Shown here: in pieces, positions 1-50,107 of the stretch
How positions within the stretch are numbered: position 1 is the stretch's first letter
Layout: every line of letters starts with the position of its first letter
NCBI GenBank assembly: GCA_029834535.1
Contig: JAQMWT010000326.1
Coordinates: 1-50,107 of the forward strand
Direction of reading: 5' to 3'
Length of the DNA stretch: 50,107 nucleotides
Origin: Chrysophaeum taylorii
Taxonomy: Eukaryota; Sar; Pelagophyceae; Pelagomonadales; Pelagomonadaceae
Notes under the pieces: model-generated
What the model was told of the DNA's origin: nothing
The model's input: the letters and a program-made list of their open reading frames with translations, nothing else
Database searches by the model: none
Made by a program: the position numbers and the translations under genes

Positions 1-2185
1 AGGCGATCGTCCGTCTCGCTGTCGTGTAGAAAACGACGGCGTCCTTGCTTCTGACCTCGCTCACCATGGTCGCCATTGTGGTTCCAAGATCGGTGAGGGC
101 CGTTTGATTCATTTTGAAGGCGATCGTGCGTGGCGTTCGCAGTCGATGCATCATCACGAAGCCCAATCGGACCGCGATATGGGCTTCTTCTGCACTGGTT
201 TCGCTACCACATTGCACAGTAGTAACGATCCGGATCGCGGTTGCAAACTACGCGACTTCCGTGTTCATCGTCATCATGGGTGGTCAGAAGAACCCACGGA
301 GCACGTTTATACCCCACGAAAATGGTGCTGCGAAATCAGCGGATCATATTCCCAGACGGTTTCCATCGCTATGGCGCTGAACGATCGGAGGCCGTGACGC
401 GACCTCCCCGCCCCCGCGGCGGTTTATTCGATTTCGGATTAGGTTGGCCTTGATCCTTCCTCCTCCATCAACTTGTAGTCAGACATCAACAGCGCCATAG
501 TAATAAGCGCCAGCATCGAGCTTCAGTAACATCAGGATGTCCGCTCCTCATAGTCCGCACACGGTCCTCAACAACGGACGTCAATCCACTGATAAATGCG
601 GTCGAGGATATGACATCATCCAGCGCGGCTGGACACGAACAAAACTCCAAGGCTCCAGGTGGAATCACAATTTGAATACGCTTAGACGTGCCGCTCCCCA
701 GACTTCTTCGAAACTGGGCCTGGGTGACCTTCCGCAAAAGCAGCTCGCGCTGCGTGCGCGGAGGTCGGCAAGTCGATCTAAAATAATCCAAAATCTTGTC
801 GCCAATACGTCTTGTTAAGACGACGGATACGACGAACCGAGACTGCGCATTTCATCGTCCGTATCTAATTTCAAGTAAAACGACGGGCCGTGTGGTAGCT
901 CATGGCAAGCATCCTTGTATTTCTGCAAATTGTTCCTCAAAAACTGGTGCAACGGTGTCCCGTAGATGCACAGGTAGTAACGTATGGTGCTCGACCGAGT
1001 AATGGTCATCTGCTAAAAGGCATCATCGCCGCCGAATCCAAATTAAATTGCCGTTGGTCTCGGCCGTCGATGACGAGTTTGAGTTATCAGGCTTCAAACT
1101 GGAAGTGGGTCGATGGGATCGGCTCAAGTTGCCCTTTTCGAAGGCGTTGGCAACCGTGTGCGATATTCCCCGCGATAATTCCCGTAAAATTTTCGTACCT
1201 TTCATTCTCAATGTCCGCCCTACCCTCATTCTCCGTATCGACTCAGGGGCGGAGGTTCATTCCCCGTTTCAGTGTTCCTTTCCGGTTCAGGCGGCCTCAC
1301 GGGCGTTTCCGGTTCAGGTCGACTCACGGGTCGTTCGCGGCTACTCTCCCGACGCGCACGTTCGGCTAACAATTCATCTCGTTCACGACGAAATGGTGAA
1401 CGGCATTTCGCGTAGGGTCTTCGAGGTCTCAATCTCTTGTTGTAATGTATCATTGAGCATATCAACTTTGCCGTCAAGCAACCTCTTTCGCTTCAGCCCT
1501 TTCACGAGCAAAAGCTCGGCTAATTGTTCATTTTCGCGACGTGCCGCTCTAGGTGTTCCACGAAGTGGGCTTCAGGCTGCAGATCCGCGCTCAATAGTAA
1601 CACGCTTAGCACGATCCGGAGTCGTTGGACTCAACGGCAGGAAAATGGCAGTATCCGGAGGCACATCAGGGGCACGTCAGCAACGTCGACTGCGCTCAGC
1701 CTCTCTTAATTCACCGTCCTCGCGGCCTATCTCAGGGGCGGCGGGAAGAACTGGAGGAGTTTGGCTCCTCGCACACGCGCGTTTATCTCCATACTGTCAA
1801 ATTTCGATCGAGAATGCTAAACACGTCCGGATCCGATCACCGTGTTCACGTCGATTCCAACAACATGCTGTCGCTGTAAAAACAGCACTCGCTGGCAATC
1901 CGCTGGCAGTTCAAAATAGCCCGTGGGTAGATACTCGCCAAACAGCACCGTTCAGCTATACCAAAATCAATTCGGGCGAATGCGCTGCCATTTCCAACTC
2001 GCACGCGTTCGTCGTCACTCGGATCGTACGAACACAAACAACGTTCGCGTATATTCTCAACGCAAACTGGTCCAATGGAACTCCGTTGCTTGATCAGGGC
2101 GCACGTACAAATCCGGACCACGTGACCGCGAACAACGGCAGCACTCAATCCGGCGACCGATGTAGTCGCACGATACGGTATCCGC
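1..2185 (-). pseudogene. gag: Gag polyprotein of Gypsy B copy 1 (decayed, partial)
   Basis: Gag is the structural protein that packages retrotransposon RNA. This copy is spread over several minus-strand frames. Positions 2199-1846 resemble the N-terminal segment encoded downstream of the LTR in copy 2. Positions 1477-1226 hold the charged coiled-coil-like stretch FRRERDELLAERARR followed by a P/E-rich tail. Positions 791-486 match the gag core of copy 2 (TQRELLLRKVTQ versus TQQELLDSLRKVTQ). Below 480 come the PPRGRGGR tract and an HDDDEHGSRVVCN segment equivalent to the Cys/His cluster of copy 2. Frameshifts and stops separate every block, so it is not functional. It continues beyond the left edge. 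Confidence 0.7.
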
Positions 2186-2483
2186 TCCACCGTCGGCACA
2201 GACTCCCCGACCCCCGGGTGACAAAGGTACTCACCGACTTAGTCCTAGACCTCACTGAACGAGGAAAACACGGACGCGGGGTCGGATAAGCTCGCCACAC
2301 ACACTTGCTCACGCTCACCAAGCCTGCTCAACAAGATGGAGGATGGATGGATAGCAAGGAAACTACCAGAATACAGCAGAATGGCACTCACAAGAGAGGG
2401 TGATGTCTAAGAGATCGAGGAAAGGTGTCCCGTTGAACAGGTATCCAGCCTCGAAGAGAGGGGCGGTCAGGGTTGCCGCCACA
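2186..2483 (-). repeat. 5' LTR of Gypsy B copy 1
   Basis: Read on the minus strand, the LTR starts TGTGGCGGCAACCCTG, matching the LTR at 26778 across most of its length (for example GCTTGGTGAGCGTGAGCAA). The 5' tip is secure from the two-copy comparison. The 3' end is placed by alignment to position 27104 of copy 2 and could be off by tens of bases. No target-site duplication can be tested because the other end is outside the window. Confidence 0.6.
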
Positions 2484-2510
2484 GCCCCTCGGGCGTCGCT
2501 CGCGCACTGT

Positions 2511-2580
2511 AGGTGAACTTACTGGGCCAGGTGAACTTGGGCGTTAGAGATTGGGACTAGTGAACTTTGGCCTGCACTTG
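2511..2580 (+). repeat. Short GGTGAACTTACTGG repeat block ending in GGCCTGCACTTG
   Basis: Three imperfect units of GGTGAACTTACTGG, with the spacer TTAGAGATTGGGACTA, end in GGCCTGCACTTG. The same order, left flank (CGCGCAC.GTAGG) and right end occur at 15519-15870. The block lies between the Gypsy B LTR and the broken end of Copia A, so it marks either an insertion or the junction that truncated Copia A. Confidence 0.7.
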
Positions 2581-5241
2581 GCAAAACCAAATGGAAACAG
2601 CCCACCCCAACCAGATCAGCCACATCAACAAGTGGATGAATTCCACTTCCCTTGAATGGCGCGAGCCGCGGTTGCTTATATATTTTGAGTTGCGACCATA
2701 TACGGCGATTCGTGCTGTGGGGCATCGTCGAGCGACCACGTATGCCAGGTGATCCTGGAATGCGGAATCCTCGTGCCAGAGATGCGCCTTGAGTTTGTCA
2801 CTCTGGTTGCGATGCACGAAACTGGGGTAAAACTGAATCGTCGAGAACAATCTCACGGGCGATCCTAAGCGTTTGGGCATCGGAATGCTACCATCCGGCG
2901 GAGGTGGCCGGTTGAGGAACGAAAAATCCAGTTCAGGTGTCTCGTCGCTGACGGGACTTGGATCAGCAGTGGAGGTTGGATCCGGTTCTTTGTGCTCGTC
3001 GCCATCGTCGGGTTTGTCATCCTGGTCGTCATCTCGAGTCTCGCCCTCATTTTTCAATTCCTGTCTAGCTTCCGGCATTTTCTGTTCGCTTATAGCTGGG
3101 AGCGGGCCCTCTTGCCGTGCCTCTGTTGGGATCTGCATGAGTGCTTATCAGGCCGATCTCGCTCATTGCGGTTGACTGGCATGTCTTATCAACGTGGAAG
3201 TCGTTACAGGTGACGATTTTTCCATATCGGCCCTGATGTACAAGCAAGATAGAGCATGAACATCACGGATAAATCGGTCCGTGCCGGGAGGTTTGAGGAC
3301 ATGTATTGCTGTTGAGATTGGAGGCGGAGACGCTGCAGAGGTTCCAGCGGCTTTGAGGTAGACAAAGTGTGACAGGTTCGCCAAAGGGAAGGAGCTTCAA
3401 GAGCAGTGCCATGGGTGACATGATGCGCGGGGGACGGTACAGTGTGTTTGCTGCACCGAAGAGCAGTCCATGAGCGCTGGTTGTCGGCTTGGATCTTATG
3501 CAGCAGAGCAAATGGGTGATAATACTCGGCGGCAATGGGCTTTCCTTCGATGCGGACTTTGCGCAGGTTGAGGAGGCGAACTACAGTGCCTCGGGTGTTT
3601 TCCTTAATGATGTTTTCCGCGAAGTTCCGCTGGTGGAGGTGGCGACCAATGATTTGAAGCTGGATACCGAGTTGCACCTTGAGCGGGTGGAATGCTTCGG
3701 AGCGGGAAGTTGAAAATGCATCGGACGAGATGATTTTCACGTTTACATCGAATTCGACCTTAATCACATTGACCACGCAGAGGATGCCAGCCAGAACGTC
3801 CTGCGCGTCTAGTTTCCTCAGGAAATAGACCCACTTCTGTGCTGAGATAATATACACAAAATGTATGATGTAACGAAAGCCACCATAGCGGCAATGCTGG
3901 GTATGATACATCATATGGAGATGTTGGCCAGGAGCATAGTGCCGTCCATCTGTGACCAGGGCAGTTGGCTGTGACGGAAGCTGACATGCGATTGACAGCG
4001 CTTGCGCATTCGCTGCAGTCTTGCAGATGCCATCATCACCTGGGCGGAGATCTCGTTACATTAGCGGCAATCGTGCGGCGAAGAAGCTCTGGTTGCTGGG
4101 TAGTGTATTCGGTGCCAGCGAGTGTCCAAAAGCACTCTTTTGGCGTGCTGAATGGTGCCGGGCTTGTGCGAGGGGGCAGAGCGGCATCAGCCGAAGCGGG
4201 GCTGGGTCGCTTGTCAACTCGGACTTTAGCAACGGTGGCCTCGGCAAGCGTCTCGAGCTTTTCGATTTGCCACAACGCGGATCGCATCATGGCGAGAGCA
4301 TCTGCTACGGCATTGAAGAGGGAGGTGAGGTTGGGTCCTCCTCTGCTAGAGACGGCTGGAGATGTTCAGGAAGAAATTTGCCCTGGTTGATGTCCAGGGC
4401 TGGGGATGCCATTGCGTTTTGTTGCCCATTCGATGTGAAAGTTCACGTGGTGGTGCGATTGTGAAGTGCGAGGACAGCGTACTTTATTTGCCTGCAGCAT
4501 GTGGTGCGGGACGGCGTTAGCCAGTGCCTTAAACGCGAAGTACGGCGGGTGCTGTTTGGAACAGGCGGAGCTGTTCCGGGTCAAGTGGTGTCAAACTTTG
4601 CGATTTCGTTGAGGGTCGCAGCGGCAGTGTGGTCTGGAGATATCAGCAGCGAGGCGTTAGAGTAGCTCGTGTTGGTTGGGTATGAGCCAGTGACCGAGCG
4701 GCACGGTGCTTTCTGAAAGCGTGTCGCCGATGTGGCCGATGTAGTCCGCGTAAGTGGGACGTGCTTCGGACATTGTGAGTCCCTTGGGGTCATCGAGAGT
4801 AATTCTCCCTCGTGATCGATCGCGGCAAAGCCAGGATGCGAACGATTCATGTGGTGGACCCAAGTGGAGGGGCGCGAGCAGCTGTGAGCGGCGGCCAAGG
4901 ACGTGGTGTAGGCGACGACCAGAAAGGCGGTGCCCTTGGGAACATCCAGGGAAAAGGCGTGCGTTGGGGAGAAGACTGCGGGTTGGTGATAACAGGCCAA
5001 TATATGAGGGGGCCTGGAGAGTAGGGTGAGGGAAGCGCGCGGGAAGTAGCCACAGGCGACGGCAGTAGCCACAGGCGACGGCAGTAGCGACGGTGCCGGT
5101 GATCGCTCCATCCAATTGGTAAGCACATTGGGGCTCTGAGGCATAAAAACAGCGGAGAGTGTTCCAAGCGGCGAGAGTTGGATGTTGCGACAAGTGATTA
5201 TGCAGCAATGCGAAAACCAGGAGGTGGGAGACGTGGGTCAT
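2557..5241 (-). pseudogene. MTase motif X, unknown linker and Copia integrase (Copia A, decayed)
   Basis: The segment continues in the same frame after the TGA at 5272-5274 that ends the protease-MTase ORF. DGTPYSTMTHVS is a plausible MTase motif X. YIGHIGDTLS aligns with YIGYLRGSDRKL of Copia B. From about 3914 to 3204 the integrase core is recognisable by comparison with Copia B: RYGGFRYIIHF versus EWGGFTHIIVF, and KIISSDAF versus RTLYSDAF, which carries the second catalytic Asp. The first catalytic Asp is not clear. Positions 3138-2557 hold an acidic, P/T-rich tail typical of the region after a Copia integrase. At least five frame changes occur. Integrase would insert the element cDNA; this one is dead. 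Confidence 0.6.
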
Positions 5242-5271
5242 GGTAGAATAGGGGGTACCGTCGGCGTCGAG

Positions 5272-6945
5272 TCATAAATCCGTGAAGGGCTTCTTCGAGC
5301 GAGCAAGCATTTGACAGATGCGGACATTTTCGGAAATCGAGAGTTTAGAGGCGTTGGCGGGTGCGTAGGAAAAGGTGGCCTTGTGCTGGTAATAAGCCAA
5401 GGTGGAGCGGGGCACGGTGCCACGAAGGGCGGGGTTGGCGATCCAGAGATCGTCGGGGATAGTGTGACTGGGGTCCAGGAGCGGAACCATGCTCGGAGGA
5501 GATGTTAACCAAGGAGAAGCGGTTTTCTCGAGGTTGTAATCGGTGAGCGGGCGGGCATAGACAGCGAGATAGCGGGTCTTGCTTATGACGTCGCCAAAAT
5601 CGGAGGCATTGTAGACTCCGGAGTGTCTGAAGTAACCTAAGCGCTGATAGCATTTGGCGAGTTGGGTGTACTCGTGATGAGTTCGGGGGTTGGGAGGGAC
5701 GTTCTCGACAATGGCGTAGGTCGGGAGCGTGCAGCGAACAAAGCGGATTTGTTCTGTGACGAAAAGGTCGGCGGTCACCGGAGTGGCGTAGCCGTCGTAT
5801 TCTTTCATTACACTCAAATGTTGACATGGCAGTGTGAAAACTGCTAAGTCGAAATGAGGTAGTCGTATTTTGCCGGTTTGCAGGGCGGCATTGAGCTTTC
5901 TTAGATCCGCATAATGCTGAGCGTGCGGAAAGAGTTGTTGCGCGCGGGCGCGCATAATAGGGTGAATTTCACAGGTGACCACGACAGTAATACGTTTGTC
6001 GAGGCGCTTGCGAAAAGAGGTAAAGCCTTCTTGGTGGAGTCCACCTGCAATAATGGCTGTTTTTAGCGGAGGGGGTTGTGCTTGCACAGAGAGGTCCGCT
6101 GAGCCAGTGAATGCATATTGGACGACAGTACGCGGGAGGCTAATGAGTTCCGATAGAAATAGTGAATGATGCTGTAAAATTGCGAAATCTAACATATGGG
6201 ATTGCGAGCGTGTTGTTGCGACATGCTGCGTGATGTGTGCGAGCTCATCTTTGAGTGACATTCGCGTTCCGGTGTGGAAACCAGGCACAGCGCGGAGTGT
6301 TTGCTTTGGATGAGACGGCAGGGACAACAGACCATTGGTTTGGCGATTGGCGAGAACTACAGCTGTTTTGCCTATAAGCGTCTTATAATCGTGGGGATCT
6401 GCGGTCGACGTGTTCATAAGCTCGTAGAGGTATGGTTCGTGTGGCAATGGCGGGTCGGTTGCTTGTACGTTCAGAGCTTTGAGCTGAGATGTCGCTATAA
6501 CCTGTAGACCTTTTCGGAAGTGCGGGACGACCAGAAAGACGAGATATAAAGCGCAACCTGTTGATTCTTTTATATCCTTGGAGGAGAGACCTGCGGCCTG
6601 CAAATACAACGGTTTGACGACGATGAAATGGCTGGTTAAGGTGCCTCTTCCCACACGTATGGTGTGTTCGGGAATCCGGCGTCTGGACTCGGGAGCACAG
6701 TGTTGAATGGCGCGAGTGAAGCAAAATGATGCGCCACCGTCAATTAAAGAAGCTTCAGTGCCGGGTCCATTGCATCCGTGTGGCGAGTTAGTCTTCTTTG
6801 ATGTCTTTCCTGGAGTGTAAGTGGCACAATGAAAATCTGCGACTCTGGGGGGGATTGTTGATGAGGTCGGGAAATTCGTCATCGTGAGGCTTGGTGCCTG
6901 ATTGAGTAAGATGTGGTTGGCGGCACAGGGGTCGTCGGCAACCAT
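5272..6945 (-). CDS. Aspartic protease - C5 DNA methyltransferase ORF of Copia A (557 aa, uninterrupted)
   Basis: N-terminal residues 1-200 carry a retropepsin-like active site, SLIDGGASF (DGGAS in place of DTGAS). From about residue 290 follows a C5-MTase fold. Visible parts are a weak glycine loop (KTAIIAGGLHQEG), VTCEIHP at the end of motif II, LPCQ as motif IV with the nucleophilic Cys at 5824-5826, VENVP as motif VI at about 5698-5706, DFGDVISKTRYLAVYAR as motif VIII, and KLSISENV as motif IX. Such enzymes transfer a methyl group from S-adenosylmethionine to cytosine C5. PCQ and ENV are intact, so catalysis is possible. The ATG overlaps the gag stop in TGATG, suggesting coupled re-initiation. 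A TGA at 5272 cuts the frame before motif X, which lies just downstream in the same frame. Confidence 0.8.
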   Translation of the reverse strand: MVADDPCAANHILLNQAPSLTMTNFPTSSTIPPRVADFHCATYTPGKTSKKTNSPHGCNGPGTEASLIDGGASFCFTRAIQHCAPESRRRIPEHTIRVGRGTLTSHFIVVKPLYLQAAGLSSKDIKESTGCALYLVFLVVPHFRKGLQVIATSQLKALNVQATDPPLPHEPYLYELMNTSTADPHDYKTLIGKTAVVLANRQTNGLLSLPSHPKQTLRAVPGFHTGTRMSLKDELAHITQHVATTRSQSHMLDFAILQHHSLFLSELISLPRTVVQYAFTGSADLSVQAQPPPLKTAIIAGGLHQEGFTSFRKRLDKRITVVVTCEIHPIMRARAQQLFPHAQHYADLRKLNAALQTGKIRLPHFDLAVFTLPCQHLSVMKEYDGYATPVTADLFVTEQIRFVRCTLPTYAIVENVPPNPRTHHEYTQLAKCYQRLGYFRHSGVYNASDFGDVISKTRYLAVYARPLTDYNLEKTASPWLTSPPSMVPLLDPSHTIPDDLWIANPALRGTVPRSTLAYYQHKATFSYAPANASKLSISENVRICQMLARSKKPFTDL

Positions 6946-9246
6946 CAGCGAAAAAGCAGACTCTGGTGTAGAGCACGCATGTAGTCGCTGTGACGTTGTG
7001 CGTAGTCTTCGGCGGAATCATTTTCATCATTGATTTCGGGGATGGTGTCGTCGTAGAGGCCTAGCTGTCCGTGGTCATCATAGAAACCGAGGTGGCCTTG
7101 GTCATCTTTTTCGTCAGTTTCGCCCTCATCAGGTGGATCATCCTGAGGATCGGACGATAGCACCTGAAGAAACTCCGCGGCATCGCAATCTGCTTCGGAG
7201 AGAAGTATCTCATCGGAGATAGTGGTGATGAGGTTGATTAACTTGTTCATGCGCTCGGAGTTGGACGTATGTTGGCGACCGGCTTGGCTCAGATTCCGCA
7301 TGGTTTGGAGCTTGCGACGGACTTCACGAAGGGGGACCTTGAATCGTTGGTCAGGAGTAGATGGCTTTGGTGGATGCGGTTGGGTGGGAAAGGTGACCTT
7401 GCGAAGGTGCGGGTGCTCGCGTTTGTCGGGGGTGACAGGAGCAGCACGGGGGTTTTGCTTGTTCTTCGTTGGGGTGACAGGGGGAGCCTTGGGCTTGGGG
7501 CTGTCATTGATGTCATAGTACGACGGAGAGCGAGGATTGGGAGGCTTTTTGGGGGGAGGCTTCTTGGGATGTCGCGTGAGCTGTTTCTTTCTATAGGCGT
7601 GAAGGTGTTGGATGAGATCATTGTCGTCATCTTCATCGAGGTTGGCTTCAGTGAGAAAGACGGCAACAGGGTCGGTGTCGTCATTGGAGGCTTCATTGGG
7701 ATCCGGAGGGATGTCATCTTCAGAGGGGGTGTCTTCTTATGCGGCGAAGTGGAGACCATGACGGCGGGAGCGAAAACGTGGATTATCCTGGTCCTTAGTC
7801 GGTAGACGACCAAAGTCAGTGACGAATCGCAACGGCTTGAAATTGAGGTTGGGATGAGGCTTAAGGCGAGCCCAAAAGTTGCGCTCGAAAGTGGAGATAA
7901 CCGTGATGCGGGCGATCTACTTGGGAAGGTGATTAATGGCTTCTTTGTCTTCGTCGAGTAATAGCGAGTCGTTTGGAGTACGTAGACAACTGGCAAGACG
8001 CGCGAAGCCCTTGATATGCGTTGGGGCGCGGAGTCAAGCAAGCTCGGGGGGTACTTGAAGCGAAGAATTTGGTGAATTTCCTCGAGGATCTTGTCGTCGG
8101 AAAGTTGGAGAGAGGCATCGTTGGTGATTTGGCGGAGTTGCTGCTGAACATAGCGCATATAGTCTATACAATGCGCAGGCTCGTGGATCTCCGGGTTGAA
8201 CGGCGTGTCCAGGAAGGCATTATAGACATAATGCGCATGGTGGACGTGGTTCTGGCCCGTGTGCTTGTCAAGTGCGAGGCGAACTTGGAGTACAAATTCG
8301 AGTCCTATCGGATGGGAAGATCCGAGTGCGTCAATTTCGACGGTATGCTGGGTGCTTGACGGAGTCGGTACCGGCATGTAGGAAACGGCGAAAGAGGGGG
8401 TGCACGGTCTCGCGGATGTACACGATGAAGTCGGCTTCTTTTCCTTGGAGGTGATGTTGAGTGATCGGATACAACTTTCCTTTTGTCGTATCGGTCGTGT
8501 CCTTGTCTTGGTCTTTAAGTTCTTTGGGCTTTGGCTCGTAGACGTTCTCCAAGAAGTGTTTACCGAACTTGCGGTAAATACCCTTGTAGTAGACGTAACG
8601 GCCTTGGAAATCTCGCGTGTTCCCGGCGGTAGAGTGGCTGTCGGGGTCATTGTCGTATTCCTTGATGCAGTGGCCGAGAAGAGCGTCAGCGAGATCATTA
8701 GATCCGCGCAAGACGGATTCCCACGTGTAGAAGCCCTGCAAAGAGTATTGTGCTATGCCTGTTTCACGCATCAGATGTTCGACGAACAACGGCATAACGC
8801 GTAACGAATGCATTTGGGGTGTGACTTGCGCGGAGTCCATTGACTTGAGGACGGCGCTAGGTGGGTCACTAAAGGTGTTATTAGCCTTGGTCTTGGGGTC
8901 TTGTTGAGCTGGAGTGAGGGGTGGAGCCGCAGCAGCGACGGCAGGTGGTGGTGCTCCTTGCGTAGCTTGCATTTGTCTCAGCATATCGCAAAGGTCTTGA
9001 ATGTCTTGTTTTTGTGCTTGCATCTCCCTTTGATGCCGAGCTTCGTACGCTTGAGCTTGTTGTTGCATGTCCCTTTGGTACTTTGCTTCTAAGCATGCTT
9101 CTTGTTCTTTTATCTCCTCCTGGAGTTATTGATTGGCTGGCATCTTGTTCGGGTTCAGGAACGTCAGGGAGCGGAACTCTTATGGAAACCTGGGGCTCTG
9201 CTGATACCGGGACTGGTGCCCAATACCTAGAGAACAGTAATTTCAA
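6945..9246 (-). pseudogene. gag: Gag of Copia A (decayed, several frames)
   Basis: Three minus-strand blocks make up a long gag. About 9246-8331 begins PLPDVPEPEQ and has a Gln/Glu-rich coiled coil (MQQQAQAYEARHQREMQAQ) followed by a globular part. About 8370-7950 continues in another frame (EIDALGSSHPIG to HQILRFKYPP). About 7935-6945 forms one frame containing FVTDFGRLP, a P/K-rich stretch and an acidic C-terminus, with one internal TAA at 7737-7739. No CCHC zinc knuckle is visible. The gag stop TGA (6947-6945) shares its A with the ATG of the protease-MTase ORF. Gag would build the particle and bind RNA. The start codon cannot be fixed because of the frameshifts. Confidence 0.6.
9195..9208 (-). 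other. Possible primer-binding site of Copia A
   Basis: On the minus strand GGTATCAGCAGAGC closely resembles the widespread TGGTATCAGAGC primer-binding site complementary to initiator tRNA-Met. It sits between the LTR-like sequence and the start of gag, where a PBS is expected. The extra bases and the missing first T make this tentative. Confidence 0.35.
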
Positions 9247-9506: not shown

Positions 9507-10725
9507 TGCCCGCTCTTTCGAAACTCAGCTTCCGCAGCTAGGAAGGCCACCAGAGCCAAGCCGAAGGTGGCGAAGCGCCCCAAGGCACGGAAGGAGCCTG
9601 GGCGGGCCCCTATGACAGCCCGGGAGAAGCGGCAGCGAGAAAAAAAGGCTCCGAAGCGAGTTTTCAACAAGATAACGGCTGCGTTGGACGAGGAAAAGAA
9701 ACGCCAGCAGCAGAAAGCCTTCGCGGAGGCCTTAGCGTATTGCGAGAAGGAAGGAGTAGGGGCCAAGAAGTGCATGACTGACCACCCAGAGTGGATTGAG
9801 CTCATCACCTGGAGACAGCTCGACGATAGACTGAAGGAGCGTGCTTTGTTTGATGAAAGAGCCGCGACGCACACTCGCTCGGACCGGATGTCGCTCACGC
9901 CGAAGGAGGAGCAGGCGCCTGTGAAATGGATTGTTGAGAGCAACAAGGCCCGCGCCGCGCCAAGCTGCGAAGAGATTTGAGTCAAAGTGCGCCATGTTTT
10001 ACTCAATCGTCGACTTCAGAACCGGCGCGGCGGACGCAAGAAAGCCCCGTTCAACAACGCCAACTACAAACTTGTGTGCGGCCATTCGCCCTCGGTAGAA
10101 TTATTCATAGGTTTCTTCGCCCGCAACTCGCACCGGATCAGCACGAAGATCAAGCAAAATAATCGATGCGAAGCGTGCCGCCGTGAACTGCGACGAGATG
10201 GTCGAGGAATACTTTGCGGGCACCCACGGACTTCGCGCCGAGCTCGAGGCCGCGGGGATTATGGACGAGCACGGCGCCATATCTGACCCCCGCCTTGTCC
10301 TGAACCTCGACGAGACGCCCCAGTTCGTGGACTACGCCGACAACAAAGGGAACGCCAAGACCAAGTTTGGGGCCGGCAAGAGTGACGTCTGCTGCGCTGA
10401 GGCCTATGACTACCGCGAGTGCAACACTGCCATGATGTGCTGGGGCCTGTGCGGGCCGCGATGGACGCGGCTGTCTCGGCATGCTTCGAGGCGTGGCAGC
10501 GCTGCAAGGACGGCTGCGTCTGCGGCCTTGACAACGGCGCCGTGTGCGACGCCAGCAAACTCAAGTACTGCGAGATCTGCAGGGACCTCAAATGGAAGCG
10601 GTGCAGTAAGAAGGCGTGCAAAAAGGCGCTGGAGGATCTTGCATTTGCCGTGCCGGATGATGCTGATGCTGAAGATGAAGATGAGGAGGACAGCAACGCC
10701 GAATTCGAGCGCGGCGAGGGGCTTA
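9507..10725 (+). pseudogene. DDE-superfamily transposase, decayed, with C-terminal Cys-rich segment
   Basis: 9567-9980 encodes a basic N-terminus and an MTAREKRQREKKAP stretch. 9987-10160 (another frame) encodes a helix-rich segment ending HRISTKIKQN, like the end of a transposase DNA-binding region. 10183-10440 encodes DPRLVLNLDETPQFVDY, the LDET block typical of DDE_1-type transposases, in which the Asp is catalytic. The rest of the catalytic domain is deleted. 10450-10720 encodes a Cys-rich tail (CVCGLDNGAVCDAS, CEICRDLKWKRC) and a long acidic run. It would excise and re-insert its own DNA if intact; two frameshifts and the internal deletion make it inactive. The gene is cut at about 10725 by the 3' end of Gypsy A. 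No TIRs were found. Confidence 0.6.
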
Positions 10726-12410: not shown

Positions 12411-12830
12411 TGATCGGTTCCCCGTCTTCGTCTTTCTCGATCAACTTGTCGATAGGGTTGCGCGACAGACAATCCGGGATACGCATGCCAGGGGAATTTC
12501 CAGGCTTGTATCCGAGCTCCCGGTCGAACGCAGCAAGCCGCATAGCCCATCACGCTAACTGTCCAGACGCATGATTCGAATCCCGAAGAAACGTTAAATT
12601 ACGTGATCCGTCTCTAATTTCGTCTGATGACCTTCGATATAAAACCGGAAATTTTCCAAGAGCGGAGAGTACTGCGAGGAGTTCCAAGCACCGAGGATCA
12701 TACTTCCTCATCGACTTAGGCACAGTTCGACTCCAGTACTCAACAACTCTCTCTTCTATTCTTTCTCTTCCATCGTCGTCAACGACGGGCACCTTTTGAA
12801 ATAGGTAAGCACCCAACCCATGCGCGGAAG
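12283..12830 (-). pseudogene. RNase H domain of Gypsy A
   Basis: It degrades the RNA strand during reverse transcription. From 12816 the frame reads MGAYLFQ, EERVVEYWSR, then CLELLAV (catalytic Glu), SRNLTFLR and, after one stop, WAMRLAAFDRELGYKPG. The homologous Gypsy B domain (35029-35553) has ARWAMRLAIFD where this copy has A-stop-WAMRL, so the TGA at 12550-12552 replaced an Arg CGA codon. A frameshift near 12840 separates it from the RT, and another near 12300 from the integrase. The third catalytic block (TDHRNLTF in Gypsy B) is changed to GSRNLTF. Confidence 0.75.
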
Positions 12831-14837: not shown

Positions 14838-14842
14838 TCGAC

Positions 14843-14883
14843 AGATGTTTGTCTGTCTGTTTGTCTGTCTGTCTGTTTGTTTG
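14843..14883. repeat. (TGTC/TGTT)n microsatellite
   Basis: About 40 bases of GTCTGTCTGTTTGT-type tetranucleotide repeat at the left edge of the insertion in the Gypsy A MTase. Confidence 0.9.
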
Positions 14884-14928
14884 TCCCTCGATTTAGGGTA
14901 AGGATCAGGTAGGCACGCGAGCCACGCA

Positions 14929-38460: not shown

Positions 38461-39400
38461 TGCGGTCGAGGCTTGTGCGCAACTTCGGGATAAGCGGAAA
38501 CAGCGTCAGTAGGAGTAGTAGGGGCAGATTCCAGTTGGATATGGATAGTAGGGTCGGTACGTAAGACCTGGGTGATGAACTCTGTAGAGACCAGAAGGTA
38601 TTCCTCCAAGTCAGCCAGAGATGCAGAAGTAGCGCCAAACTCGGATGAGTTGTGATCAATAAAGCTGGTCGGCGCCAGGTACGTAAGTGCATATTGTAAG
38701 GAAGAAGTGCCAAAGGCAGCAGCGTGTTCAGTGAACGCAGATAAAAGGGGCTGAGGAATAGGGCACGTAGGTGAAGCATCCGCAGTTAAGACGGTTGCAG
38801 CTGGGATGCTGGATGCGCACTTGGCGTGGGCGAAGTAACCATCGACGTACGGGTAGCGGGCAAGTAAGTCAGTGCGCAACGGGAGAAGAAGACGAGCTAA
38901 CAACGCATGTTCCCCCTCTGAGCAGATAGCAGACCAGAGGATACCACCACGGAGATGAAGGGCGGAGAGGGCGGGAGACTTGAACGTAAGAAAGTGGTGG
39001 CGAAGATCCCAGCGGAAATCGGCGAGCTTGCCACCAGCGGCTTTGTAAGCACCAATAGTAGACGCTTGTAACCGGGCTCGGATATTTTTCATAGAAGTGG
39101 CCTTGCGAGTGTTAGGCTGTTTGGAACCTGGGACAAGAATGAGGTCATCTTGTGCAAAAAGGTCTTTGTAAGAAGGAAGCAAGGGCGGCGGTGACATAGA
39201 GCCAGATTCGTCGGCGAGAGCGTCAGAAGAGGGAGAAGAGGCCGGAGTAGGGGACGAAGAAGGAGCTGAAGGAGGTGGGGAGTGCCCCCTCTGAGGATGA
39301 GGAGTCCTTGCCCCCCTCTGAATGACATGGTCTTGGATAGGGGTGTGGGGTGTGAGCGAGAAAGGCGCGGAAGGAGCGTGAGGCGGAGGAGCTAGTTCAG
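38451..39400 (-). CDS. Extra domain of unknown function between integrase and RT (Copia B)
   Basis: Part of the 444-aa frame 39785-38451. After a P/S-rich linker (THTPIQDHVIQRG) and a short acidic-aliphatic segment comes about 210 aa of ordered-looking sequence: KNIRARLQASTIGAYKAAGG, LRHHFLTFKSPALSALHLRG, EGEHALLARLLLPLRTDLLA and LADLEEYLLVSTEFITQVL. Most Copia elements have only a short disordered linker here. I do not recognise the domain; the high content of Leu and hydrophobic heptads suggests helices. It is open throughout, so it may be under selection or simply young. Confidence 0.5.
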
Positions 39401-41728
39401 GATCAGGAGTAGGATGCTGCAACATGTAGAGGAATTGCAGCTTGGACGAAACACGAATTTGTCCGTTTTCAGGGTTGAGGACGACGTCAGCGAGATGGTC
39501 GACGCGTGGGGAGACGAGCGGGTTTTGCGCGTTGGCGCAACAGAGATACAGATATTTGCGGCGGCACGGTTCCCACTTGTGGTGTTCATGGGGCTCCAAT
39601 AGGAGGTAACATTCAGCGCCGAAAATCTTGAGCATATCGTGTTGGGGAGTGTTTAGTTGGTTGTAGAGTAGCTGTTGCGGACTCAGAATAGCATGATGAA
39701 TGCGCTCGAGCGTGGCGTTCGGGAGAAGGTTATAGCTTTGAACGGTGTGTATCACCGCCCACGGAAACATGATGGCTGGTTCCACGATCTTGGCGCCACG
39801 ATAGTGAGCATTAAGGAGAGAACGAAGGCGAGTTGAGGAGGCGGAGGCGATGAAACCGATGGCGGACTCAACTTCAAAGTAAAGTGGTGCATGTACGGCG
39901 GGAAGGCGATGAGTTGAATGCCCTTATCGACGCGGTACGGGGAGGTAATGTGCTGGCTAAAGTAGGGCTTGAAGGCATCGGAGTAGAGGGTGCGCATGTG
40001 CACGTTGAGTTGTGTACGACAAAAGTCATACACAAAATCCAGAGCTTGAGTGAACTCCGTGGCGTTGGTGGTGCGTGTAAAGTACACCAAGAGAAATTTC
40101 GAAATGAGTTCCTTGAAGACGATGATATGTGTGAAGCCTCCCCATTCGGATGGGATGGTCACATAGCCGCCGTCGCACGCCCAGACTTCGCCGGCTTTGT
40201 GAGTTTGCTCAAAAGAAGGCTTGGTCGCATTGAAATGCTTGTGCGGGTGGCGCTTGTTGTGTGCGATGCAGTCGGTGCATAAGTCGCGATATGGTATGTC
40301 AGAAGCAGAGAATCCAGGGCGAGCAAGTACGTTGGGGGCCTTGGCAGCGACGTTGTCGGGGCAGTGATGCACCCGGTGAAAGCGATTGGCACGTTCTTTG
40401 GCATTGAGATATTCGGTGGATCCGTGTGCGAGGGACTTACGAGGAATTGGATGAGCGGGAATGTGCCGTTTGCGCCGAACATCGAACTTGAGTTCGGTGT
40501 CTAAGGCAGGGGAAGGCGGTGCGTCGTCATCCTGGTGCGCAGCAGGGTCACTTGGAGGTGCATCCTCATCATCACGAGTAACGAGAGTATCTTCGTAGGA
40601 CGAAGATATATAGTTTAACGACATTTCGGTCAAGCAGTTGCTGGAAATAGACATCATAAAAGCTTGTGCTAAAGACAAGGTATCTGTGCTGCACGTGGTG
40701 GAAGCTTGATTAATGGTCATGAAATTGGATACATAGGATTTCTTAGTCACTGCAGCAGTATGTTGAAAGGTAGGGTCCAACATAAGGGATTTAATATCGG
40801 CAACGAGGAGCGAAAGGTGCTTGTACAGAGTGCTGTACGTACCGGCAGGCAGAGCATTGCTGAGCATGTCACAGCAAAGGTCATGGCGTAGAGACAATAG
40901 GAAGGATTCCTGTTGTTTGGTGTGGTTGTTAGCACGAATCAACTCCGGTCGAGTGGGGTAGCGTAATTTTCCGTTGCGAGGGTCGAGTAAAATAATATTG
41001 GCATACCCTCGGACGGTTGGCAATGGAGCAAGCATTGAGTGGATTTTAGAGCCGAGTTTGCGGTCACTTCCACGAAGGTACCCTATATAGCGACTATGAG
41101 ATAAGTGGTGATCTTCCAGAGCAAAATGAGAGTCCTTGTAATCGAAAGAGTTGTCGGTGGCCTTGTAGGTAAGGCAGCCAGGCATCACAAGAGCGCATCT
41201 GGACAAGAGTTTTTGTATGGCGGTGCCATAGGTGGCAGCGGAGCCAACTTGGGGAAGGGCTTGGACTATCCACAAGTAACCCATAAACGGCTCCAAATAT
41301 ATGGACCTGTCCCGGTCGCGGGGGATGTCGGAAGCAGTGAACGTATACGTGCTTCCAAAGGCGTTGATGGGGGTTTGCTGTTTGGTGGTGGCATTCTCTA
41401 TGGTGAGGTTGCCGTCGGAATGGTGGCCACCAGTTAAGAAGTAGGAGTTGTGTGATGTTGATGAGGTTGTAAGTAATAACCTGTGTGACGGTTGGTTAGT
41501 TTCAAAAACGGTTATGTAATAGGACACAGGAGTGGGTGAGTTAGTGTGTAAGCTGGCAAACAAGTTATAGAGGATTGTAAAAACCTTGACGTGTATAGGA
41601 TGTGTTGCATTGGGTAATGGCTCCATAGAGGAGCGTTTAATGCACAACTGATGATAAGTACACTCGGATTGAACAGAGTGAGTACGTTGTTCGTGAGCCT
41701 GTTGTGAGTGAAGGCGAAGCAGTAACAT
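39400..41728 (-). pseudogene. Copia B: MTase motif X, unknown region, zinc finger and integrase
   Basis: The frame 41728-39752 (658 aa) begins with the end of MTase motif IX and has LPNATHPIHVKVFTILYNL as motif X. About 350 residues of unassigned sequence follow (FMGYLWIVQALPQ, HSRYIGYLRGSDRKL). Then comes the HHCC finger (RVHHCPDN to DLCTDCIAHNKRH) and the integrase core: EVWACDGGYV (first Asp), EWGGFTHIIVF, and RTLYSDAFK (second Asp). After a frameshift near 39850 the frame 39785-38451 gives the C-terminal part, including FGAECYLLLEPHEHHKWEP then RRKYLYLCC, a signature of Copia integrases. The catalytic Glu block lies in the broken part. It inserts element cDNA; the frameshift inactivates this copy. 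Confidence 0.75.
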
Positions 41729-41737
41729 ATTGAGGGA

Positions 41738-42533
41738 TTAAAGGTCAGCCATAGTAAGCTGAGCAGAACCTGTGCGAGAGTAAGGTGCAAAAGTTTTAGG
41801 GACGGGGATGTATGGAGGATCGGGGAACACCCGGATCCAGTCTTTGGATATGTGGTTAGGTAGCCAAAGGCGCTTGGGAATAGCTTGTAGATCATCCACG
41901 ATCTTTAGGAAGGGGCGTGGATGGATGATGGGCCACGATAATAGGTTAATTGGTCCAGTAGAATATCTGCGTGCGATGCATATCCATATTTCTCTAGATT
42001 GGTAGTCGCCAGAGGTAGGTCGGGAACCTATCAACAACATCGACACAGTAATCAAGTGTAGTATGGATAAGGTTGGCTACTGCGATGTGGTCTTGATGAC
42101 AGTACTTATGCGGAGGCGTCATCTCAGCCAGTAGTACCAAGGGCTGGTTTAGCTTGATGACAGACAACATGCTGTCGAAAAGAGAGTCGTCCAGCAGGCT
42201 GTGTAAGTCTTCTGTCTTGTGCTGTTTTAGTAAATTCCTGTTTGTGCAGGGAGGAGTGATCTCAATTATATCACAATGGAATGTGCGCCTTTCCTCTGGT
42301 GAGATTAGGTGAGGGTGATTAATAAAGGCGATGAGAGATTCAAATAATAATACAGTAGGAAAACGGTGGCGTAACATACGAACAAGCGTATCATCAGACT
42401 CAACAACAACTTTTACATTGATATTTAAGCCTAAGTCATTAGTGGCTTGAGACAGGAACGCCGGAGTTGACAAACCAGAACAAAGTAACATGACAGAGGG
42501 TTTGCGGAGATTGGACTCTTGTGAGAGAAACAC
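41738..42533 (-). pseudogene. C5-MTase of Copia B (one frameshift)
   Basis: The frame is continuous with the upstream protease except for TGA at 42549-42551. Visible: VMLLCSGLSTPAFLSQA (motif I), VVVESDD (motif II), EITPPCTNRN (motif IV; PPC at 42246-42254), LVLLAEMTPP (motif VI with Glu), then after a frameshift near 41997 SREIWICIARR (motif VIII) and a P/I-rich target-recognition-like stretch. QLTMADL-stop-SLNMLL is motif IX, with TAA at 41738-41740. Motif X follows in the next frame (41728 on). It would methylate cytosine; PC and Glu are kept. The glycine loop is unusual (SGLSTP). The order protease-MTase-integrase is the same as in Copia A. Confidence 0.75.
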
Positions 42534-42548: not shown

Positions 42549-43871
42549 TCAGGTTAATGGCTGCGTGTTCTGCTGAACAAATTTGTTCTGTTTCCGAAGA
42601 TTGAGAACCAAAGGGCGAATCCACGAGCGATCTGGTAAAACTCTTTGGAGTAGGTAGTTGTAGTATGCCAGTAGATCCCTGTTTTCATGGTATCGCTTGA
42701 GGGGAAATGCGAGAGAGCGAAGTTCCAGCCGCTTGTCGCGCGCGATGTTGTAAGTGAGACAAGGGAGAGCGGGTAAATTAGCTGCTACATAGTGTATGGG
42801 TATACGTACATCTTTGTCTATGCGGCTCGTGACAGCGCTGAGCTTTGGCTCAGCTCGATCATTGAACACAGTGGTCAGGTTTGTCTGGTTCCACTCGAGC
42901 ATACTCAGGATAGCGAGATGTCGGTCATGCACTGGCTGAAGACATAAAGCGAAGTCGATCTTAACATAGCCAACTTGTGGATGATCTGGTAGGGGAATAA
43001 CGATGTTACGTGTTAACATCATGTGTGATGCCCGTTGTTGTCCTGTAGCCGTCTGAATAACAATCGGCGCGTATTTGGAATCCAATGGAATTATATGATT
43101 GGGTATTGCGAAATCGCAAGTGGGCATCATCAATGAGATGGTAGCACAAGAGTCAAAATGTAGAAAATAGCAATGTGGAGGGAGACTGTTTACCTTCATG
43201 TAGTTGGTGAGGAAGGCGTTTTCCGAATGTGGGCAAGTAGTGGAGAGGCTGGCTGTGAAGAAGTTCTTCAGCAATAACAGATTCGTTGGAATAATGATCG
43301 GTTGAACAGGTGGTGATGGTTCGTCAGCCTCATCAGCCATGCCGTGCTTTTCATCAAATGACGATAGCGAAGTATGATCGGCATCCCTTTTGGTTTCGGC
43401 GTGTGATGATGCGTTGAGGGCAGATTGGACCTGTGAAGATAGCGAGGACAATAATGCTGGTGGTAAAGCCGAGATGGCGGAAGCGGTAAAGAGGTTAGGC
43501 ACGGTATTAGAAGGATTACCCTGTGTGTTTGTAGTAGGAGGAGTTGCCTTTGGGGTGGGAGCAGTAACAACAGTATGGTGTTGTGGCTCCACGTAGTTTA
43601 ACGACTTTTCGGTCGAGGATAGATGAACGTCTACATCATAAATGATGTCTTCTGCAAACATGAGCTGTTCGTTTAGACGAAGTAAACTACTGTTGTCCTC
43701 AGTAGATGTCGTTGACAGAATGTCAGCTGATTGTAATAGAGTCTCAAATAACTTGTTGATATTCTGTTGTAGCTGAGCCGTGGTATCATTATCTGTCACA
43801 TGCTTCGTAAGTTCACTACACTGTTCTCGCAGGGTGTTTAAGGTGTGGTTTGTTCGATCTAATAATTTCAT
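42549..43871 (-). CDS. Copia B spacer and aspartic protease (440 aa)
   Basis: The ATG (43871) overlaps the gag stop as ATGA. Residues 1-110 are helical and Gln/Leu-rich (NTLREQCSELTKHV); 115-200 are T/P/S-rich and disordered. From residue 230 comes the protease: CYFLHFDSCATISLMMP has the active site DSCAT in place of DTGAT. Later VGYVKIDFALCLQPVHDRHLAILSMLEW has the shape of the second half of retropepsins. It would process the polyprotein. The Gly to Cys change in the active site is unusual and may mean loss of function. It runs without interruption to TGA at 42549. Confidence 0.65.
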   Translation of the reverse strand: MKLLDRTNHTLNTLREQCSELTKHVTDNDTTAQLQQNINKLFETLLQSADILSTTSTEDNSSLLRLNEQLMFAEDIIYDVDVHLSSTEKSLNYVEPQHHTVVTAPTPKATPPTTNTQGNPSNTVPNLFTASAISALPPALLSSLSSQVQSALNASSHAETKRDADHTSLSSFDEKHGMADEADEPSPPVQPIIIPTNLLLLKNFFTASLSTTCPHSENAFLTNYMKVNSLPPHCYFLHFDSCATISLMMPTCDFAIPNHIIPLDSKYAPIVIQTATGQQRASHMMLTRNIVIPLPDHPQVGYVKIDFALCLQPVHDRHLAILSMLEWNQTNLTTVFNDRAEPKLSAVTSRIDKDVRIPIHYVAANLPALPCLTYNIARDKRLELRSLAFPLKRYHENRDLLAYYNYLLQRVLPDRSWIRPLVLNLRKQNKFVQQNTQPLT

Positions 43872-45412
43872 GTTAGACCGAGAGGACCTGTCAAAAGTGC
43901 GGGGTAAATTGGACGGTCATGGGACTGTCCGGCAGTTTTCTTGGTGACGTAAGAATCACCAGGACGATAATACGATAAATCGCTGCGAGAGAAAGGCTGG
44001 CGAGCATCATTAGAGTTACGCAAGCGTCTAGCATTAAACGTGGAAGATGTACCAGGTTGGGACGAAGTGATGAAGGCGAGTGTGTTAGCAGTTTGAGTCA
44101 GACTTTTGTCTGATGAGTCCAAAGTGTTTGTAAGTAGTAACTTTGGCTTTGGTTGAGATGATAAACCTTCGACATAGGGTTGCCAAGAAACAGGGCGTTC
44201 TAAGCGTCTTTTGTTCGACCCATTTGATACTACATTGTAAAGGTCTAATGCGCATTCTAAAATGTAGCTAGGGTTGGTAGGGTGACACAATCGTTCAGCT
44301 TCTGGCACAGGTCGAGATGAAGATCGGGTTTCGTACATATAACACCAATCTACCCAACCACGATCGTAACGGTTGTTGCTGGTATTATCGGCATAATGCC
44401 GATGTATCTCTTCATAGATTTTCCTACAAAGAGTGCCAAAGTCGAATTGAAGGTCAGTCTCTTCCTGGTTAAGTTGGTAAGAGATTTGCCTAAATGCTAG
44501 GACAGCTTCGATAAATACATGGACATACCAGTTAGGATTATAAACAACAGAGTTAAATTGCTGTTTCAAATAGGACACATCAGTAGTCGTAACAGACTCG
44601 TAGTGACTAAAGGCGATGAGCATAATAGCTCGAGCCTTGTTGGGTAAATAACTTTTGTTGTATACCTCATTGATGGCGGGCCAGGCCGCAAGTGCCGGTT
44701 TTCCAACACTTTCAAGATTGAAGTAAGTATGCAAGAATGTAGCGTACGTGTTCTGATAAGTGTGCCAGTCAGCAGTTAACGAAAACGTGGTAACAGGGGC
44801 ACGAACACGGGTGTCGAAAGCTAATGCCTTCGGGTGCGCGCGATTTAAGATTCGTTCCTCTTCTAAGAAACGAGCATTGATTTAAGGACGTAATGCCTTG
44901 ACTTCATAGTCGTAACAGACAGTAGCTACCTGAGCTACTTCTGCATCAGGTAAGTGGGGGAAAGCTTCGTTGGTGAAATGCCATTCCTGATACTCAGGGG
45001 GCAATTCATCAACAGCTAAACGGAGATCAGCAGCCCTATCGGTCTTCCATTCCAGGAAAACGCGATCGAGAATTTGATTCCGGAGGATCTCGTAGTCCTT
45101 GCATGGCCGAGTATATGCTTCGTACGAGTCGTAATCGAGGAAAGCATCGGCATGACTGGACCGTAGTAATTGCTTGATATGCTTCATTTGCAAGGATACC
45201 TTGCGGTTCTGAAGCTGGAATCGATTTCCGTTGTTAAGAAACCCAACTACAGGAGCTTCGAGCTTCAATATATCCGCACCTGTGATCGCCTTGGGTGCGG
45301 CTCGTGCTGCGTGTTCTGCCATAGCAGTTGACAGGGAACCTGTGGGTTCAGTCACGCAACTGACACTGTCTAGACATTCTAAGGGGGTCTGTCTATCGGT
45401 GTCTATGTACAC
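43868..45412 (-). pseudogene. gag: Gag of Copia B (one internal stop)
   Basis: A single frame from ATG 45412 to TGA 43868, broken only by TAA at 44882-44884. The first part has ILKLEAPVVGFLNNGNRFQ and SYEAYTRPCKDYEILRNQIL. The second has FLHTYFNLESVGKPALAAWP, LPNKARAIMLIAFSHYESV, NPNWYVHVFIEAVLAFRQIS, DWCYMYETRSSSRPVPEAE and LERPVSWQPYVEG. The copy starting at 49114 shares YTFFNFES..KPAL.MWP, PNKLRAVMLLA and WCKLYETRSG, confirming a gag family. No CCHC knuckle is visible. It forms the particle. The C-terminus overlaps the protease ATG (ATGA), hinting at coupled re-initiation. Confidence 0.75.
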
Positions 45413-48318: not shown

Positions 48319-49113
48319 AGCTCTTTTCCAACATGGAGTAGGCCTCCAGGTGCGTACCGTCGGGTATGGGGTTTTCTGTTTAATTAACAGAGACTTCGTT
48401 CCTCGTTGTCAGTGTAAACGCTTCTATGGGACCTAGTGTCCTTGAGGAGTTAGGGCTTAAATCCCTACCTTGTGTAGTAGCATGTGACAAGCGGAATGGT
48501 CTGTACACGCCTAAGACTGCCCGCAGTCTCTACCATGTACCCGGAGAGGGTCAAATCTCTCCAGGTTATGGGCCCAGATGCGTAGGTGTGTCAGTCCAAC
48601 TGTGTTGTACGTCTAAATGGAGTGATCAATTTACGCCGGATCACGAGTACAATGCGACAATATGTTTGGCGGTGGTCTACTGTACATATTTGTTGTGTGA
48701 CGGTATGTGCCCACCAGTTAATTTGGTTTGTGACCGAGTTGGGTCGGTCACTGGTCACATGCACTCGCATAACCAATAAAATTATTTTTTTTTCCTATAC
48801 AAGCCGCGGAAACTTGTACGGGTTTTTCCTTCCATTCCCCAACAAAAGACTGACTGCTCGAGAACTAATCCATTCTTCAGTCTCAAGTCACCCTGTTTTA
48901 AATAGCATGTTGATTTGTTTGGTCTTGTAAATAAGCCCACGTTTAAAATAGCGTACTGTACATATAACCCGCACTTGAGAAACCCTTCATTCTTATGTGT
49001 CGAATCTGTTTATCAATCCTCTAACCTACCTTGATCAGTCACGATACTTCTCCTAAAAAATACCAATATCCGGAATGCTCCGGAATACAGCCAAATCCTT
49101 GATAACGAAGTAG
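48319..49113 (+). repeat. Probable LTR between two Copia units
   Basis: Non-coding; shares CTCTCCAGGTTATGGGCCC (48558-48576) with the Copia B LTR and ATAACCAATAAAAT (48768-48781) with the Copia A-like LTR. It is preceded by the extra ORF of one element and followed by the gag of another, so a shared or tandem LTR is likely. AATAAA is at 48775-48780, followed by a T run. Ends are not defined. Confidence 0.5.
48775..48780 (+). promoter_or_regulatory. Polyadenylation signal AATAAA
   Basis: Within the presumed LTR, directly upstream of a T-rich run; the same 14-base context occurs at 35832-35845. Confidence 0.5.
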
Positions 49114-50078
49114 ATGCCATCTTTTCAAGATGGATATCCGAGAAAATTAACGAATTACATCTGCATTAATGAAGATGCCCTGCCCGAACATTTAAAGACT
49201 TGGCACGTCAACTCTTCCCATCAACTAACAGTTGATGTCCGTAACAATCTCGAACGACTTTATTACCAAGAGTCGTGTAATCTCGTTCGTCCTGAATTAA
49301 ATAAGGATGTCAAACGTGTCCTCACTTTATTAGATACCCGACTCCCTAAATCAATTGTGTATGATTCATCTTTAACTAACATATCCTTTACAGGTCTCTC
49401 TGATGCCGACTGGATCAAACACTGCGAAACTTAATAAGCTGGTTTCTTGTACACATTCTTTAACTTTGAGTCCCAAGAAAAGCCCGCTCTCGTTATGTGG
49501 CCTCAACTAAAGAAGATTTATGCAAATACTGCACATCCTAATAAATTACGTGCTGTAATGCTTTTAGCTTACCATTACTATGAGACAGTGTCTTGTACAG
49601 ATGTAACTGAGCTTAAATCTCAGTTTAATCGAATGTCTCTAAATGTTAATTGGTATGCCCATGTTTTTGTCGAACAACTCCCTGCCTTCCAGTCTCAGGC
49701 AAAGCAATTAAATAACGATGAAGCATCAATCCAATTTAATAACTCCATAATCACTCTTAAAGCTCACGAGGAGATCTACCGTCATATGCTAATCCCTCGG
49801 ACCACGAGCGCTATTCTCAATCTTTATTGGAATGGTGTAAACTCTACGAGACACGCTCTGGTAACAACTCGAGTCACGATCCCGAATTGTTAAAGCTAGT
49901 TGATCCTAACGACGTTCGTCCACTATTGGAATTCTTGTTAAAGATATACAATGAAACAAAGTTTTCTTCTAACCGACGCTTGGATAAACCCGCTTCCTGG
50001 CTCCCTTACATCCCTGGTACTACCGCTACCAAGCCACCTAAGGTATTATTGATGGACACTATTCATCAATCCCAATGA
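49114..50078 (+). pseudogene. gag: Gag of a further Copia B-like element (5' part, decayed)
   Basis: From ATG 49114 the frame gives an N-terminal domain (VDVRNNLERLYYQESCNL), then two consecutive stops (TAA TAA at 49432-49437). It continues in the same frame as FLYTFFNFESQEKPALVMWP, PNKLRAVMLLAYHYYETV and LNVNWYAHVFVEQLPAFQ, the counterpart of the Copia B gag. A frameshift near 49800 moves it to the frame with WCKLYETRSG and RRLDKPASWLPYIPG. It ends at TGA 50076-50078, and the window ends 29 bases later; the protease ORF would follow. Confidence 0.75.
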
Positions 50079-50107
50079 ACCTCACAGCAATACGTAACTG
50101 AACGAAG

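What the first reader, a model, noticed from the sequence alone, without database searches (positions are those of the whole stretch)
1..50107. C5-MTase in three element families of one locus, downstream of the protease in the three that retain it
Copia A (5272-6945), Copia B (41738-42533) and Gypsy B (31800-32915) encode an MTase just downstream of the protease. In Gypsy A (14343-16607) the protease is deleted but the MTase still lies before RT. The placement is shared although the pol order after it differs (integrase first in Copia, RT first in Gypsy). This suggests either repeated convergent capture with a positional constraint, or exchange of a protease-MTase cassette between Gypsy and Copia elements.
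Basis: partly seen in the sequence, partly recalled or inferred. Interest (0 to 1): 0.9.

Follow-up and report, generated by a model that had tools for sequence, protein, structure and literature searches.

The report
Methyltransferases inside algal Copia and Gypsy
In a marine alga, two unrelated kinds of jumping gene each carry their own DNA-methylating enzyme in the same place of their polyprotein, apparently picked up separately and kept by selection.

The parts
6948..8674 (-). Copia A gag remains
   Evidence: tblastn of L069 gag ORF, 60-64% identity
6447..6807 (-). Copia A protease-like region (LIDGGASF motif); no profile support
   Evidence: reading of ORF 5275-7017; no Pfam hit for the L069 counterpart; interval computed from tblastn register
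4446..6066 (-). Copia A C5-MTase, motifs I to X (TLPCQ at motif IV, ENV at motif VI); frame broken near 5272
   Evidence: PF00145 3.9e-9; full extent
3423..4052 (-). Copia A integrase region; no RT follows in this copy
   Evidence: tblastn of L069 Pol; rve in L069 E 0.0061, below cut-off
44183..45376 (-). Copia B gag
   Evidence: tblastn of L070, 94%
42666..44179 (-). Copia B protease-like region (FDSCAT motif); frame break near 43900
   Evidence: tblastn of L070; motif reading; no Pfam hit
42549..42551 (-). In-frame TGA followed by CTA between protease region and MTase of Copia B
   Evidence: TGA in 28 of 28 junctions found (27 distinct copies, the window counted twice as L039 and WIN) among 32 stretches with Copia B
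40777..42512 (-). Copia B C5-MTase, motifs I to X (TPPC, AEM, QSRER, NALP), one frame break near 42011
   Evidence: homology to Copia A, joint profile, extent
39953..40201 (-). Copia B integrase core
   Evidence: rve E 0.0031, below cut-off; position
37375..38472 (-). Copia B reverse transcriptase
   Evidence: RVT_2 8.2e-27 in 37873-38505; tblastn
16538..17530 (-). Open frame upstream of the Gypsy A MTase, probably gag
   Evidence: ORF; no Pfam hit over a cut-off
15867..16508 (-). Gypsy A C5-MTase, first part (motifs I to about VIII)
   Evidence: tblastn of L080, 78.5%
14826..15866 (.). Stretch with tandem repeats that splits the Gypsy A MTase
   Evidence: gap between the two tblastn pieces; repeat family D5
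14352..14825 (-). Gypsy A C5-MTase, second part (TRD, motifs IX and X)
   Evidence: tblastn of L080, 76%
12759..13823 (-). Gypsy A reverse transcriptase
   Evidence: RVT_1 1.6e-11 in 12756-13805
10413..12440 (-). Gypsy A integrase frame (H2C2 and rve)
   Evidence: Integrase_H2C2 2.1e-16; rve 3.9e-5, below cut-off
30570..31070 (+). Gypsy B protease-like region (VDGMADAS motif), approximate
   Evidence: ORF reading compared with L071; no Pfam hit for the L071 counterpart
32006..32900 (+). Gypsy B C5-MTase, motifs I to X, spread over more than one frame
   Evidence: PF00145 7.7e-6 in L071
33125..34220 (+). Gypsy B reverse transcriptase
   Evidence: RVT_1 4.2e-13 in 33609-34238; tblastn
34960..35535 (+). 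Gypsy B RNase H
   Evidence: RT_RNaseH 6.6e-26 in 35008-35550; tblastn

Best explanation
These are LTR retrotransposons of the alga Chrysophaeum taylorii whose Pol carries a complete C5 cytosine methyltransferase between the protease region and the next Pol domain. One MTase was captured by an ancestor of the Copia lineages A, B and C, and a different one by an ancestor of Gypsy A and B; each then descended with its element. Shown: homology, position, conserved catalytic motifs, purifying selection in Copia A and B, high copy number, agreement of MTase with RT and IN. Inferred: the MTase is made as part of Pol (in Copia B by reading through a conserved UGA, in Copia A from a UGAUG stop-restart or a -1 shift), is packaged with RT, and methylates the element's own cDNA (or, less likely, its RNA) before integration, which spares the new copy from host recognition or sets its chromatin state.
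Against: No activity data. No clear CG-decay signature: C-to-T differences at CpG are commoner than at CpA and CpC but not than at CpT (Copia A: CpG 0.073, CpT 0.076, CpC 0.060, CpA 0.035; Copia B: 0.037, 0.036, 0.030, 0.021); CpG observed/expected is 0.83-1.22 in six element stretches, near 1, though lower than in two host-gene stretches (1.26, 1.46), which would fit some CG methylation or plain base composition. 15 of 44 Gypsy A-type RT places have no listed MTase, so MTase-less relatives are not excluded. Motif VI in Copia B and Gypsy and motifs I and VIII in Copia A depart from the usual. dN/dS used only copies with open MTase frames. Lack of detectable Gypsy-Copia MTase similarity cannot rule out a very old exchange.
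Confidence: 0.7

Rival explanations
1. A protease-MTase cassette moved between a Gypsy and a Copia element by template switching, so all MTases here are one family in the same slot.
Confidence: 0.1
2. Three or four separate captures, one per family, drawn into one slot by a functional constraint, as the finding's first alternative reads literally.
For: Shared slot; Copia A and B MTases are only 19-20% identical.
Confidence: 0.07
3. The MTase domain acts on RNA (primer tRNA or genomic RNA) or works as a nucleic-acid binding chaperone, not on cDNA.
Against: The DNMT2 similarity of Gypsy B is confined to motifs I-IV; the Copia profile hits bacterial DNA MTases and DNMT1 better than DNMT2.
Confidence: 0.2
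4. Chance: decayed host DNMT pieces nested in transposons, or an assembly artefact.
For: Window copies are all broken.
Against: Over a hundred matched places per query, near-constant spacing to RT in Gypsy A, purifying selection, and one-frame Pol copies.
Confidence: 0.01

Closest known systems
KnitGypsy-Dnmt3 of Klebsormidium nitens (de Mendoza et al. 2018, PMC5890265)
   Same: LTR Gypsy element with a C5-MTase inside the Pol frame; key residues kept; Ka/Ks below 0.2 (section and passages read).
   Different: DNMT3-related in a charophyte; here no DNMT3 assignment, a pelagophyte host, two Gypsy families, and Copia elements as well. Its position relative to the protease is in a figure I could not see.
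SymbioDIRS-Dnmt3 and SymbioLINE-Dnmt of Symbiodinium (same paper)
   Same: C5-MTase in retrotransposon coding regions, hundreds of copies, more than one element type in one genome.
   Different: DIRS and LINE elements, not LTR Copia or Gypsy; the paper states that the Copia elements of Symbiodinium lack any DNMT domain (passage).
Orchid Ty3/Gypsy elements with an AlkB-like m6A demethylase (PMC9289625)
   Same: Capture of a nucleic-acid modifying domain by LTR elements (passages).
   Different: RNA demethylase in an additional ORF, not a methyltransferase inside Pol.
Tca2 of Candida albicans (PMC2194720, start of abstract in a search listing)
   Same: UGA stop between two retroelement frames, as in Copia B here.
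   Different: There the UGA separates gag from pol; here it separates the protease region from the MTase.

Membership tests
C5 cytosine methyltransferase (PF00145) | Profile match over the curated cut-off | tested here: met
   Copia A 36.8 bits, isolated Gypsy B domain 26 bits, Gypsy A 34.4-37.6 bits, cut-off 22. Not met by Gypsy B inside its whole polyprotein (18.6 bits) nor by Copia B alone (no match); the joint Copia profile matches C5-MTases.
C5 cytosine methyltransferase (PF00145) | Motif IV cysteine and motif VI glutamate | tested here: met
   Both invariant in 17 of 17 aligned Copia A rows, 7 of 7 Copia B rows and 5 of 5 Gypsy rows, PPC and EQE; rows were chosen for open frames. Motif VI differs from ENV in Copia B and Gypsy. 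Motif names are recalled.
C5 cytosine methyltransferase (PF00145) | Methyl transfer to cytosine C5 | not testable with these tools
   Needs biochemistry.
DNMT3 family (as in known retrotransposon DNMTs) | Closest to DNMT3 among C5-MTases | tested here: inconclusive
   No DNMT3 chain among the listed PDB hits; only the dcm superfamily in NCBIfam, below cut-off; no broad tree was built.
Ty1/Copia | RVT_2 with integrase before RT | tested here: met
   L069, L070, L077: RVT_2 far over cut-off, rve before it but below cut-off (17.2-17.9 bits against 32.6); an SH3_retrovirus match over cut-off in L077.
Ty3/Gypsy | RVT_1 and RNase H followed by H2C2 and rve integrase | tested here: met
   L071, all four over cut-off; in window Gypsy A RVT_1 and H2C2 over cut-off.
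LTR retrotransposon | Long terminal repeats | tested here: inconclusive
   No long direct repeat pair was seen flanking a window copy; the fetched stretches L069-L071 show none and may not reach both ends.
Retroviral-type aspartic protease | Profile match or D[ST]GA active site | tested here: not met
   0 of 3 regions match Pfam at E up to 10; motifs read DGGA, DSCA, DGMA. Position and a LLGGRDIR..GAIVDF stretch in Gypsy B still suggest a diverged protease (my reading).

The most novel reading that the evidence does not exclude
Gypsy and Copia elements of one alga captured unrelated C5-MTases independently and both set them at the head of Pol just behind the protease because the enzyme must be released early and be present in limited amounts in the particle where cDNA is made; in Copia B its dose is set by readthrough of the UGA in front of it.
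Probability: 0.25. Interest if true: 0.82.

Novelty: new variant of a known kind. Interest (0 to 1): 0.62.

Why it matters
C5-MTases inside retrotransposons were known from dinoflagellates (LINE, DIRS) and a charophyte (Gypsy). A genome in which both main LTR superfamilies carry their own MTase, at high copy number and, at least in Copia, under selection, opens the question why a mobile element would methylate DNA to direct test, with two independent cases sharing one host and methylome. It adds Copia and the ochrophytes to the list. I found no such report in the searches (open-access library only, listings). [quoted passage not shown] The genome paper's main text has 0 occurrences of 'transpos', 'retro' and 'repeat'.

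Tried and rejected
Rejected: that Copia A and B MTases are separate captures. Rejected: chance insertions. Tried without result: protein relatives of the Copia A and Gypsy B MTases among 5.8 billion proteins (980 and 882 candidates, 0 hits); viral contigs with the Copia A MTase only (20 pattern matches, 0 confirmed); profile comparison of small alignments, too shallow; PDB searches with single-family profiles: Gypsy B and Copia B gave only unrelated proteins, Copia A three C5-MTases of four hits at 0.021 or weaker, Gypsy A+B two C5-MTases at 0.063 and 0.96; AlphaFold2 of the window's Copia A MTase with Copia B as second row, mean pLDDT 37, not used, so no fold search was run; protease homology; CpG decay (see evidence against). 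The conserved UGA in Copia B is modest evidence on its own: 26% of 3-base stretches around it are invariant in the 27 copies compared; for the UGAUG of Copia A, 13% of 5-base stretches in 16 copies.

Rows dropped or doubled: the first dN/dS and Mantel runs held some copies twice (L004 with L011, L019 with L069); one search repeats them without doubles, with the ratio of Copia A going from 0.151 to 0.153 and no change of reading. dN/dS used only copies whose MTase frame is open over more than 93% of its length, and pairs with dS above 0.02 (210 of 210 and 168 of 171). The Mantel test kept copies covering more than 85% of each region (21 to 31 of 34 stretches). One search found the junction in 28 of 32 stretches (not in L044, L066, L067, L068, where the search motif did not match); one search gave 22 rows, 18 distinct places. 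One search left out L004, L006, L009, L019 (Copia A) and L006, L039 (Copia B) and copies cut short. One search used 44 RT places that I assigned to Gypsy A by the end of their profile match (203), out of the list (150 of 611 candidates scored), and 136 of the 143 matches (4 Gypsy B and 3 very short ones left out).
Full report
What the window is. It is contig C326 of a 70.8 Mb, 697-contig genome. A host gene from the same assembly, a DNMT2-like protein in L001, is 100% identical to CTAYLR_008533 of Chrysophaeum taylorii, and the published assembly of that pelagophyte (71 Mbp on 702 contigs, PMC10366177, passages seen) fits in size. Much of the window is decayed LTR-element sequence on both strands.

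More than chance? Searches with the window MTases gave 155, 150 and 150 matches, each limited to 150 scored of 628, 872 and 696 candidates; matches are pieces, so they are not element counts. Listed Copia B copies are mostly 90-97% identical to the window's, so recently spread. The Gypsy A MTase gave 143 matches, the last ones being Gypsy B at 43% or short pieces. From the RT side, 29 of 44 Gypsy A-type RT places have a listed MTase upstream on the same strand, 19 of them with a gap of 774-799 bases, none at control positions. Both lists are capped, and the RT class was assigned by me from the profile end, so the 15 misses may be unlisted, may lack the MTase or may be another family. Two Copia loci picked by RT hit and long frame (L077, L078) both carry the MTase C-terminal half before integrase and define a third lineage, Copia C; their motifs I-VI were not in the stretches read. 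Of the 57 PF00145 places in the genome, 55 overlap Copia A places by my comparison of the two lists; the other two are host genes (DNMT2-like L001; L002, perhaps DNMT5-like with a RING match far below cut-off). That list holds no Gypsy place although Gypsy copies pass the cut-off, so it is incomplete. The Copia MTase evolves under purifying selection: dN/dS 0.153 over 210 pairs of 21 distinct Copia A copies and 0.142 over 168 pairs of 19 Copia B copies; copies with broken MTase frames were left out, which favours low values. One Gypsy A pair gives dN 0.13 with dS 1.46, one Gypsy B pair 0.017 with 0.060; two further Gypsy pairs were too far apart or too close to use.

Positional constraint? In Copia the MTase lies between the PR-like region and IN, in Gypsy between the PR-like region and RT. 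With two events and about five possible slots, agreement by chance is roughly one in five (my estimate). The protease label itself rests on motif reading: DGGA in Copia A, DSCA in Copia B, DGMA in Gypsy B, none with Pfam support. The slot is real; the constraint is a conjecture.

How it may work. Copia A: gag ends in a TGA overlapping an ATG of the Pol frame (TGATG) in each of the 22 junction rows found (18 distinct places), including L037 where the neighbouring T run is broken. That favours stop-restart over -1 shifting, both unproven. Copia B: the PR region and the MTase share a frame interrupted by one TGA in 28 of 28 junctions found (the window copy counted twice, as L039 and WIN), followed by CTA in 25 and by ATA or ATG in L049, L062 and L063. 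TGA-CTA is, from memory, a known readthrough context; papers in the listing hold the phrase 'UGA CUA' (PMC11166343, PMC4207609), and I did not read them. If read through, MTase-IN-RT would be the minor product, much as in the gag-UGA-pol layout of Tca2 (start of abstract). I infer that the MTase is packaged with RT and acts on cDNA, as proposed for Symbiodinium DIRS elements (PMC5890265: abstract, first part of Results, charophyte section and Discussion read). Evidence on CG methylation is mixed: CpG transitions are not in excess over CpT, and CpG is near expectation in the elements but lower than in two host-gene stretches.

Compared with what is known. Retrotransposon C5-MTases are an established kind. 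Same: domain inside Pol, catalytic residues, dN/dS below 0.2. Different: Copia hosts, an ochrophyte, two LTR superfamilies in one genome, a very long TRD in Copia, EQE for ENV in Gypsy, and no DNMT3 assignment. The 2018 paper says Symbiodinium Copia lacks any DNMT domain (passage). A 2025 paper's phrase about Copia (section read) cites that paper and may be a slip.

Verdict. Observation right in substance, with corrected extents and an unproven protease. Interpretation half right: convergence yes, but twice, and no sign of cassette exchange. New variant of a known kind.

Noticed in passing
42549-42551; Copia B loci listed: In-frame TGA, mostly TGA CTA, between protease region and MTase of Copia B in 28 of 28 junctions found (27 distinct copies): possible programmed readthrough.
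   Followed up: partly
about 6948 (window) and Copia A loci listed: Gag stop and Pol start of Copia A overlap as TGATG in the 18 distinct places read.
   Followed up: partly
49174-50000 +: Start of another Copia element, gag 36-40% identical to Copia B; perhaps lineage C.
   Followed up: no
19261-21622: 17-base tandem repeats rich in GTTCG in two blocks about 2 kb apart.
   Followed up: no
20763-20922 and 34620-34779: A 160-base repeat at 98% identity, in part present inverted at 31684 and 34839; one copy lies inside Gypsy B: perhaps a short mobile element.
   Followed up: no
G000 contig C696: Eight listed reverse transcriptase hits on one contig of about organelle size; probably group II introns of the mitochondrion.
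   Followed up: no
L002 (G000:C621:15462-18998): Host DNMT in a 2086-residue frame with a weak RING-like stretch, possibly DNMT5; with L001 (DNMT2-like) the only non-Copia A places in the capped PF00145 list.
   Followed up: partly
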